NCBI GenBank assembly: GCA_947561715.1
Contig: OX387204.1
Location: 15,877,001 to 15,941,000 of the forward strand
Length of the DNA: 64,000 bases
From: Ascidia mentula
Lineage: Eukaryota > Chordata > Ascidiacea > Phlebobranchia > Ascidiidae
Direction of reading: 5' to 3'
The position numbers were made by a program, and so were the translations under genes. This document shows positions 422 to 64,000 of the stretch, piece by piece; positions within the stretch are counted from its first letter, which is position 1; each line of letters opens with the position of its first letter. Below the pieces are notes generated by a model. The model did not search any database and was not told where the DNA came from. It was given only the letters and a program-made list of their open reading frames with translations.

Positions 422-934
422 TTACACGGAGGTTCCTTGAAAAGCGTTGCACGATGAGCAGTAGTGACTAGTGGTGTACATACTGTCCATAACAAATGGG
501 ATCCAAAAACAAAGAATTCCACCCAAAAAGCACAATACAGCTGCCATGATCCAAGCTTCACCTTTTAGACTTCTGGTGGTATAAGTCAAAGCATTCTGGT
601 GGCAATTAGTGCAGACGAGGCTTGCGGAAGCTTTTCCAAGTCTTGGTGCCTGTTGGACGATCTGTACCTGTTGGTTCTGCGCGTATCCAGGTTGAACGAC
701 GACGGGATAAGGGTGGGTGACTTGGGTGTTCACTTGGTTGTGGGTGACTTGGGTGTTCACTGGGTAGTGGGTGATTTGGGTGTTCACTGGGTTGTGGGTG
801 ACTTGGGTGTTCACTGGGTAGTGGGTGACTTGGGTGTTCACTGGGTGGTGGTTGACTTGGGTGTTCACTGCTGGGTAAGGCGGTGGAGGCGGTGACTGCA
901 TGACGTACTGAGTTTGATAAGGGGCGTTTGCCAT
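422..934 (-). CDS. LITAF-domain protein 1, with 9-residue N-terminal repeats
   Basis: A single-exon frame of 170 aa starting at an ATG (932-934). The C-terminal third is a LITAF (SIMPLE-like) domain: CTNC at residues 108-111, a hydrophobic stretch ending in FWIPFVMDSMY, then HYCSSC with cysteines at 159 and 162. In known LITAF proteins these cysteines bind one zinc, and the hydrophobic part dips into the cytosolic face of late-endosomal or lysosomal membrane. The N-terminus has PPPPPY (residues 15-20), a PPxY-type motif that in LITAF recruits NEDD4-family WW domains. Residues 23-76 are six units of a 9-residue repeat of the form VNTQVTHxP. This is the first of nine such genes here. The nearest relative is the gene at 2738-3103, which has only about one repeat unit. 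Family assignment is firm; the exact cellular role is inferred. Confidence 0.93.
   Translation of the reverse strand: MANAPYQTQYVMQSPPPPPYPAVNTQVNHHPVNTQVTHYPVNTQVTHNPVNTQITHYPVNTQVTHNQVNTQVTHPYPVVVQPGYAQNQQVQIVQQAPRLGKASASLVCTNCHQNALTYTTRSLKGEAWIMAAVLCFLGGILCFWIPFVMDSMYTTSHYCSSCNAFQGTSV
707..868 (-). repeat. 27-bp in-frame coding minisatellite (six units)
   Basis: Six head-to-tail 27-bp units inside the LITAF-like gene, each encoding nine residues (VNTQVTHYP and variants). Units differ by a few substitutions, mainly in the last codons (HHP, HYP, HNP, HYP, HNQ, HPY), and the alternation suggests duplication of unit pairs. The length keeps the frame. Confidence 0.95.
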
Positions 935-29350: not shown

Positions 29351-30539
29351 CAACGGCCTGTGGTCATTGGAATTGTTACAGCGACTTCGGTGCCCTAATC
29401 GCTTACTAATGAGCGTGCATCAACTGCTGGAGACATTTGGCCGCTGCGTTTCTTAGAAATGTCGTTAGGCAAGCGCTCAAATGCGGAGCTTGTAATGTGG
29501 TGGACTTTTTGCAACTTTTTGGTTTGCTCCGAATGGGAAAGTTTGTAAAAACGCATCGCATAAGCTTGTAGTGTTGCAAGCTCGAGTGCTTTTTGTTGCA
29601 TTCAAACTAACTCAACTAAATCTAAGTACAAAATAAACAAATAAACGTCGAATACTGTGTTATCCAGACTGAGTTTTGAATTCGCACATATTCACTAATA
29701 CATGTATCACATAAAGCGTCGTCAGAGTCATGATATGTTTGTGTTTAAACCGTAGCGCTAAAACGCAAGCTCAAAACATTCTTACTTGCATTGGCTTCGC
29801 ATACTTTGCAGAATTGTAACTTATCCCATCCGGCACCCAGAAACTGAGGGTTGAAATTTTTTTTTAATGGTTTCGGCAAGACCCACAACAAGTGATGCGA
29901 TCACTCATGTTTTGACTTGGCGCATGGTAAATCAATTGTGACACTTGGTTGAGATTGGACAGGAAATCGTAGCGCAAGCGATAATCGAGTCTTCGTCATG
30001 CTGTGTTCCACCCCTTTGGCATAACTCGCAACCCAATGTTAATATTTTTTATGCACATTCCTCTTCCTTGTTTAAACCAAAACTGGTATCGAAGTGTGTC
30101 ATACTGTTTGTGGATATTTTCGGAAAGTTGATGGTAGTTATGATGGCATACTCTGCTGATGTTACTGGGGCGTTTCACCACTTTCCACATAAGCTCCAGG
30201 TAGGAATTAGAAGCCCTGCGTACAAACCCGGATAAAAGGCTTCTTTGCGAATAAAACGTAAAGAAACGCGCCAAAATAAGCGTTTAAATTTTCGGGAACG
30301 CCATTAACACTTAGCTTCAGGGATGCAGAGTTTCTGTTGAAATATCAATGTATATTTTTGACAAAAGACAAAATAGTTTAAAATCCGATGCCGGCTGTTG
30401 CGGTTTAGAACAACTTTGTGTATCGGAGCATCTTTCATTCATGTGCTGGAACCGATTTGATGTCAAAATAAGCCGATCACCACTTCCTGAACATTCGCTT
30501 CGTTAAGCAATGTGGAGCCAATAATATGAATTGTGTATA

Positions 30540-30592
30540 AGCTGCAGACAGATGGCCACTGTTTCGACCTGAAAGGTCTCATCAGTGCAGCT
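30540..30592 (-). ncRNA. Complete type I hammerhead ribozyme motif
   Basis: On the minus strand, 5' to 3': AGCTGCA (stem I), CTGATGA, GACC-TTTCA-GGTC (stem II), GAA, ACAG-TGGCCAT-CTGT (stem III), C, TGCAGCT (stem I). All universal core bases are present, G-C closes stem II next to the core, A-U closes stem III, and stem I is 7 perfect pairs. Cleavage would fall after C at 30547, before T at 30546 (GTC triplet). The gene-free surroundings, and decayed relatives at 60632-60682 and 62523-62575, suggest a small mobile family such as the retrozymes or Penelope-like elements known to carry hammerheads. Activity is inferred from structure only. Confidence 0.85.
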
Positions 30593-30941
30593 GGTGTGAC
30601 TATAAGACGACTTTGCTGACCAAACGGCGTTGTTTAACGTATATATTTTACGCAATTCCTCAACGTGTAACCCTTTGCAATATATTGAATATAGCGTGCA
30701 AGATATTACAAACATATGAAAGTATGCAACATGTAAACAATTTTGTAAAATAGGACAATTAAATATATGAGCTACAACAGTTGGGAGGCTTGATTTACAA
30801 TGTTTTGCAACGCCCACATCATTTTTCGACGTTTTGGCGAACATTTGGGTTGCGCACAAAAAGACAATACATCCTATCACAGTGTACTGCCAGTTTTACT
30901 GCTGCCTTGATGAAAGTACTCAACGGCTTACAGCAATGCGA

Positions 30942-63920: not shown

Positions 63921-64000
63921 GTGGCCCGAGTGGCCCGCGAGGCCCGCGAGGCCCGCGAGGCCCGCGAGGCCCGCGAGGCCCGCGAGGCCCGCGAGGCCCG
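63921..64000. repeat. 9-bp GC-rich minisatellite at the window edge
   Basis: Perfect head-to-tail GAGGCCCGC units, preceded by two variants (GTGGCCCGA, GTGGCCCGC), running off the end. It sits in the intron after neurobeachin exon 27 and contrasts sharply with the AT-rich surroundings. Total length is unknown. Confidence 0.95.

What the first reader, a model, noticed from the sequence alone, without database searches (positions are those of the whole stretch)
30540..30592. A structurally perfect type I hammerhead ribozyme in intergenic DNA
Every invariant position fits: CTGATGA, GAA, A-U closing stem III, C17 in a GTC triplet, G-C closing stem II, stems of 7, 4 and 4 Watson-Crick pairs. The probability of this arising by chance in 64 kb is very small. 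It lies on the minus strand, like the flanking claudin-like genes, in their intergenic DNA, so it could also cut run-on transcripts.
Basis: partly seen in the sequence, partly recalled or inferred. Interest (0 to 1): 0.8.

Follow-up and report, generated by a model that had tools for sequence, protein, structure and literature searches.

The report
Ribozyme from an animal circular-RNA retrotransposon
The self-cutting RNA motif in this stretch is well formed, but it is one truncated copy from a group of tiny mobile elements with over a thousand ribozyme copies in this animal genome, and the way the copies examined sit in the DNA suggests that Penelope-like retrotransposons insert them, copying RNA from both ends of the break.

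Summary
The hammerhead is there: all core positions, stems of 7, 4-5 and 4 pairs, at 30540-30592(-); 200 first-order random windows gave none. It scores below every Rfam threshold, as do its relatives. It is not a stand-alone intergenic ribozyme but part of a 125-bp, 5'-truncated copy (30504-30628) of a 284-bp metazoan retrozyme. The 196-Mb genome holds 1549 exact matches to the core/stem-II pattern, reversed control 0. Of 69 mapped clusters, 38 are two-armed: head-to-head units, 3' ends outward, mostly inside a target duplication (mode 12 bp). The 3' ends use two sites, ~18 and ~48 nt past the cleavage site; in 31 of 34 distinct two-armed insertions each arm uses a different one. A GIY-YIG Penelope-like family of the same genome follows the same rule (15 of 16 two-armed places among the 40 scored of 327 candidates, ~38 nt apart). 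Best explanation: Penelope-type machinery mobilises the retrozyme, priming reverse transcription from both target strands at two fixed sites of an RNA continuous across the hammerhead junction. Retrozymes are known and this mobiliser had been proposed; I found no report of this insertion signature in retrozymes.

The parts
30504..30628 (-). 5'-truncated single-arm copy of retrozyme family A (monomer positions 203 to 284 and 1 to 44)
   Evidence: 96% to the reference monomer; 3' end of the long class; no target duplication found for this copy
30540..30592 (-). type I hammerhead ribozyme
30586..30592 (-). stem I, 5' strand
30579..30585 (-). CUGAUGA core
30566..30578 (-). stem II with loop
   Evidence: stem unchanged and loop changed between one copy each of families A and B
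30563..30565 (-). GAA core
30548..30562 (-). stem III with 7-nt loop
30546..30547 (-). predicted cleavage site: C17 at 30547, new 5' end at 30546
   Evidence: inferred from the hammerhead rule (recalled)
30529..30530 (-). short reverse-transcription start site (about position 16-18), carried over from the family mapping
30504..30505 (-). 3' end of this copy, in the long class (position 44)

Best explanation
The hammerhead is part of a truncated copy of a non-autonomous metazoan retrozyme (monomer 284 bp in family A, about 288-291 bp in a diverged family B). SHOWN from sequence: copies occur as head-to-tail units and often as two arms joined head-to-head, 3' ends outward, mostly flanked by target duplications (mode 12 bp); 3' ends fall in two classes about 18 and 48 nt past the hammerhead cleavage site, nearly always one of each per two-armed insertion; arms run through the cleavage site; units of one insertion, across arms too, are more alike than units of different insertions; a Penelope-like element (PLE) family of the same genome inserts in the same way. 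INFERRED: transcripts self-cleave into monomers and are ligated into circles; a PLE protein (reverse transcriptase plus GIY-YIG nuclease) makes two staggered cuts leaving 12-nt 3' overhangs; each 3' end primes reverse transcription, one at the long and the other at the short site; each enzyme may go round more than once; the two cDNA 3' ends are then joined.
For: Copy number: 774+775=1549 exact matches to one core/stem-II pattern, reversed control 0; 906+842=1748 for a looser pattern, which also admits copies with broken stem II, control 0. Tandem units at 284-286 bp spacing plus inverted partners. Ends: of 34 distinct two-armed insertions, 16 short-left/long-right, 15 long-left/short-right, 1 short-short, 2 with one atypical end; 11 of 12 in the chromosome C1 sample, not chosen by ends. 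Matching flanks of 9 nt or more in 30 of 38 two-armed clusters against 12 of 1406 mispaired flank pairs. Of 117 aligned pieces, 108 cross the cleavage site; 0 of 107 outer 3' ends lie at position 284 or 1. PLE-1: 48 matches from 40 scored of 327 candidates, 24 short, 21 long, 3 read-through; 15 of 16 two-armed places one short and one long. PLE loci L070 and L064: 12- and 13-bp duplications and some 33-35 extra nt on one arm only. RVT_1 and GIY-YIG in a 602-aa part of a PLE-1 frame. Units over about 178 nt differ by 0.88 within an arm (n=24) and 0.74 across arms (n=19), against 3.15 between the same 12 insertions (n=66). Between one copy each of families A and B the hammerhead 5' part is 93% identical over ungapped columns, the body 70%. 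An Anolis PLE starts reverse transcription at two internal sites and extends both DNA strands (PMC11167929, main text).
Against: No RNA data: cleavage and circularity are unshown, and an uncleaved tandem transcript would equally give arms that cross the cleavage site. Gene conversion could also make units of one array alike. No PLE sharing the retrozyme's own tail sequence was found; the match is of insertion pattern, not of sequence. Two of 34 two-armed insertions have an atypical end, one is short-short, and 31 of 69 clusters are not two-armed. One PLE-1 place of 16 has two short ends, and in two others I paired the near 97% arm and set aside an older 73-74% match with a long end further out. 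L061 (PLE) has no exact duplication. No LINE or SINE of this genome was examined as a negative control. Nematostella retrozyme-like repeats have 15-bp duplications compared by their authors with LINEs (PMC4918200, passages). A few 5' ends lie at positions 1-5 (6 pieces, two of them one duplicated insertion), one exactly at 1 (L085), as expected of a cleaved linear template.
Confidence: 0.8

Rival explanations
1. The retrozyme is mobilised by a LINE-type reverse transcriptase; head-to-head arms are ordinary twin priming as recalled for L1.
For: Target duplications and 5' truncation also fit LINEs; the literature lists LINEs as possible mobilisers and compares the 15-bp duplications of Nematostella repeats with those of LINEs.
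Against: Twin priming in L1 (recalled) uses varying internal sites and gives arms copying different parts of the RNA. Here both start sites are fixed, about 30 nt apart, both arms copy the same region, and a PLE family of this genome does the same. No LINE of this genome was tested.
Confidence: 0.1
2. The arrays are a DNA transposon or MITE with terminal inverted repeats, and the hammerhead is incidental.
For: Inverted arms flanked by target duplications.
Against: The two ends are unequal in 31 of 34 insertions, one-armed copies exist, inner ends vary, tandem units occur, and hammerhead stems and core are kept between families whose body is 70% identical.
Confidence: 0.02
3. The hammerhead is not used in this family: copies share it by descent and RNA is copied from uncleaved tandem transcripts.
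For: Arms cross the cleavage site; an Anolis PLE inserts equally well with a dead hammerhead in vitro (PMC11167929); the minimum-energy fold competes with the hammerhead fold.
Against: Stems and core are unchanged between the A and B copies compared while the loops changed; retrozymes of a coral and a mussel cleave and form circles (PMC7229834).
Confidence: 0.12

Closest known systems
Metazoan non-LTR retrozymes with type I hammerheads (Cervera and de la Pena 2020, PMC7229834)
   Same: Type I hammerhead, monomer of 170-400 nt, tandem copies, GC below 50% (47.5% here), target duplications longer than 4 bp, PLEs in the same genome.
   Different: Head-to-head arms and one-long/one-short 3' ends are not described in the sections read (13, 14, 17); the word 'inverted' does not occur in that paper. 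Cleavage and circular RNA are not shown here.
Penelope-like elements with GIY-YIG nuclease (Anolis PAc, PMC11167929; Adineta Penelope, PMC3846280)
   Same: Head-to-head copies, an optional tail of 30-40 bp at one 3' end, two internal reverse-transcription start sites, both target strands cut and extended, AT-rich targets, a hammerhead near the start sites.
   Different: The retrozyme encodes nothing and has a 4-bp stem III, unlike the minimal PLE hammerheads; its start sites are about 30 nt apart against about 38 in PLE-1 of this genome.
L1 twin priming (recalled)
   Same: Both target strands prime reverse transcription, giving 3' ends outward.
   Different: Here the second site is fixed and both arms copy the same RNA region.

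Membership tests
Metazoan retrozyme | type I hammerhead with all core positions | tested here: met
Metazoan retrozyme | tandem monomers of 170-400 nt with a hammerhead per unit | tested here: met
   284-286 bp spacing; family B 288-291 bp
Metazoan retrozyme | dispersed copies with target duplications longer than 4 bp | tested here: met
   9 nt or more in 38 of 69 clusters, mode 12; not found for the window copy
Metazoan retrozyme | highly self-paired monomer | tested here: inconclusive
   circular MFE -93.6 kcal/mol, z -3.5, 0 of 200 shuffles as stable, but 65.5% paired against a shuffle mean of 62.8%; above 70% is quoted for retrozymes in PMC4918200
Metazoan retrozyme | self-cleavage and accumulation as circular RNA | not testable with these tools
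   no RNA data
Rfam hammerhead families | score above the gathering threshold | tested here: not met
   best 20.4 bits against 48.5
Penelope-like element | encodes reverse transcriptase and GIY-YIG nuclease | tested here: not met
   a 284-bp monomer leaves no room for them; the retrozyme is not filed as a PLE, only as using the PLE mode of insertion
Penelope-type mode of insertion | tail on one of two head-to-head arms, 3' ends outward, target duplication | tested here: met
   PLEs of the same genome
Penelope-type mode of insertion | mobilised by a PLE protein | not testable with these tools
   inferred from the shared pattern only

The most novel reading that the evidence does not exclude
Every complete retrozyme and Penelope insertion is an ordered two-strand event: the first cut, at a better GTTT-like site, primes at the long RNA site, the second cut 12 bp away primes at the short site, and both reverse transcriptases copy the same small circular RNA, sometimes several times round, before the two cDNAs are joined head-to-head. 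The hammerhead's job would be to make the circle, and its stem I to stop the reverse transcriptases.
Probability: 0.3. Interest if true: 0.8.

Novelty: new member of a known kind. Interest (0 to 1): 0.6.

Why it matters
Which enzyme spreads animal retrozymes, and how PLEs produce their inverted copies and optional tail, are open: the papers seen call PLEs a 'strong' or 'likely' candidate, and self-priming was once proposed for the inversions. This genome holds retrozymes and PLEs side by side with an insertion scar that can be counted in both, which turns both questions into a direct in vitro priming test.

Tried and rejected
Rfam as arbiter: no gathering hits in the window or in 11 family and PLE loci, so it does not decide. 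Permissive hits to SNORD25 and RAGATH-1-hammerhead: below threshold, not pursued. Strict hammerhead search of the 15 PLE loci: none; PLE motifs were only read by eye. DNA similarity between retrozyme and PLE loci: one 53-nt match at 83% in L060/L067, which on reading is a decayed retrozyme hammerhead near the PLE, not shared PLE sequence. PLE-2 ends: mostly one end class, because the query seems to lack the tail; uninformative. First mapping run lost matches to a filter setting and was redone. GTTT target motif: seen by eye in 26 duplications and scored afterwards on largely the same data (mean 2.93 at long-arm primer sites, 2.32 at short-arm sites, 1.45 background; n=28; paired p=0.0085); chosen after looking, and mainly from the long-arm side, so a lead only. 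By eye L064 fits it and L070 does not. Hammerhead stem I as a stop: 29 of 108 arm 5' ends lie at 229-252, but the places were picked for holding a hammerhead, which favours arms that end just beyond it; not controlled. Left out before counting: 11 loci that repeat an insertion already held, the 15 PLE loci, matches under 79% identity and clusters under 50 bp; then L043, L047, L051, L052 as apparent segmental duplicates. One-armed clusters were not merged, though L054, L055 and both of L056 look like one duplicated copy. For the C1 sample I fetched 40 regions around places listed (which lists only the first 100); I passed over the family B sites and some others.

Full report
OBSERVATION. The motif is at the stated place and complete: stem I 7 bp, CUGAUGA, stem II 4-5 bp, GAA, stem III 4 bp with A15.1-U16.1, C17. 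A strict finder gives 1 hit in the window and 0 in 200 first-order random windows. Rfam gives nothing at gathering threshold and at best 20.4 bits (threshold 48.5) in permissive mode. Eleven loci, some full of near-identical copies, also give nothing, so that test does not decide. A competing fold is 1.4 kcal/mol more stable than the hammerhead in a nearest-neighbour model that ignores the core.

WHAT IT IS. The 141 bases around the motif gave 52 matches including itself, 51 of 52 at 95-100% identity and one at 90%, from 40 scored of 1878 candidates. One exact core/stem-II pattern occurs 1549 times, reversed control 0; a looser pattern 1748 times, control 0; both take in more than one family. 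The unit is spaced 284-286 bp in head-to-tail arrays. The window copy covers monomer positions 203-284 and 1-44, i.e. 30504-30628, one arm, no target duplication found. A second family, B, has units of 288 bp in one copy and 291-bp spacing in an array. One copy of A aligned to one of B: hammerhead 5' part 43 matches, 3 mismatches, 11 gap columns (two mismatches in the stem II loop, one just outside stem I, gaps in the stem III loop), its 3' strand 7 of 7, tail 22 of 29 ungapped columns, body 122 of 175. This fits a ribozyme under constraint but does not prove it.

ARCHITECTURE. I mapped all held retrozyme loci onto one real monomer numbered from the cleavage site. Of 69 clusters, 38 had a 3' end at both outer edges (left arm minus, right arm plus) and 31 did not. 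After merging apparent segmental duplicates, 34 distinct two-armed insertions remained: 31 have one end of the short class (9-33, median 18.5) and one of the long class (39-59, median 48.5; ranges and medians, one duplicate included); 1 is short-short (the old L046 group, ends 7 and 28); 2 have one end elsewhere (L014, L020). In the C1 sample, taken by hammerhead pattern and not by ends, it is 11 of 12. Loci were found with queries containing the long end, which favours at least one long arm but not a short partner. One-armed clusters have 17 short, 13 long and 1 other end, so independent choice would give one of each in about half of the two-armed cases. Matching flanks of 9 nt or more occur in 30 of 38 two-armed clusters against 12 of 1406 mispaired controls; over all 69 clusters 38 have such a duplication, 17 of them 12 bp long and 31 of them 11-14 bp.

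TEMPLATE. None of 107 outer 3' ends is at position 284 or 1 (lowest 3, in an old copy), and 108 of 117 aligned pieces cross the cleavage site, so the usual template is continuous across it: a circle or an uncleaved multimer. Units of one insertion differ by 0.88 (same arm, n=24) and 0.74 (opposite arms, n=19) over about 178 nt, against 3.15 between the same 12 insertions (n=66) and 7.5 between all 31 loci with a full unit (n=465). So both arms most likely come from one RNA species; later gene conversion is not excluded. The circular fold is more stable than 200 shuffles (z -3.5), though its paired fraction, 65.5%, is hardly above theirs, 62.8%. Arm 5' ends cluster at 229-252 (29 of 108), the foot of hammerhead stem I, and at 193-216 (20 of 108); the first cluster may partly reflect picking places that hold a hammerhead. 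Inner junctions share 2 or more nt in 17 of 36 cases, without a chance control.

THE PENELOPE LINK. GIY-YIG gave 121 matches from 150 scored of 382 candidates. One family (PLE-1) has open frames up to 892 aa in tandem with 2870-bp spacing; a 602-aa part has RVT_1 and GIY-YIG. Searching with its 3' region gave 48 matches from 40 scored of 327 candidates: 24 end at 227-237, 21 at 263-272, 3 run through. Of 16 two-armed places, 15 have one of each and one (C67:6425556/6429574) two short ends. In two of the 15 (C52:16037238 and 16046609) I paired the near 97% arm and set aside a 73-74% match with a long end further out. Merging places that look like segmental copies (three on C1, two on C52; judged by their like spacing) leaves 12 of 13. 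L070 (PLE-1) and L064 (another family) have 12- and 13-bp duplications and some 33-35 extra nt on one arm only; L061 gave no exact duplication. In the literature, an Adineta Penelope has a 31-bp tail optionally present at one of the inverted copies, and self-priming was proposed for the inversions (PMC3846280, passages); an Anolis PLE starts internally at two sites and extends both DNA strands (PMC11167929, main text). PLEs are named as candidates for mobilising retrozymes (PMC7229834, sections 13, 14 and 17; PMC7761336, PMC11722881 and PMC8969392, passages). I saw no report of the two-arm, one-tail pattern in retrozymes in the listings or in the passages read; 'retrozyme' with 'head-to-head' gave 0 papers. 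The library lacks most subscription papers.

MECHANISM. Shown: two classes of 3' end, nearly always one per arm; arms alike in sequence; reading through the cleavage site; duplications of mode 12 bp. Inferred: 3' overhangs prime on both strands; a PLE protein does it; the RNA is circular; the hammerhead makes the circle. A GTTT-like sequence 3' of the cut seems stronger for the strand priming the long arm, suggesting that it is cut first, but the motif was chosen on the same data.

The motif and strand are right. The isolation is not, and the claudin neighbourhood found no support: three flanking minus-strand ORFs had no claudin family hit (one a mucin hit below cut-off). Run-on cutting is untested.

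Noticed in passing
L046, L047, L050, L051, L052 (C1 about 1.39-1.77 Mb): Old retrozyme copies with a readable hammerhead core sit just after an exon that reads as a TRPM-like channel in five paralogous copies. For the 39-aa stretch of L046, 36 of 37 PDB matches are named TRPM (the other is MKIAA1616), but weakly, best E 0.0079, and Pfam gave none.
   Followed up: partly
window 425-934 and further ORFs to about 25 kb: A cluster of small ORFs with a similar C-terminal half by eye; the one tested has a LITAF-like zinc ribbon (PF10601), with a 27-bp tandem repeat at 713-870 in its N-terminal part.
   Followed up: partly
L061 and L070 tails: The PLE tail of L061 resembles that of PLE-1 by eye (GACTGA.ACGGCAAATT), suggesting a conserved start-site sequence among these PLEs.
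   Followed up: no
C70:2551286-2554838: A family B array with units on both strands; 9 full units score the same 490 bits against the query, as expected from one template copied several times on both arms.
   Followed up: no
window 63923-64000: A 9-bp tandem repeat (GGCCCGCGA, 8.7 copies) reaches the end of the window.
   Followed up: no
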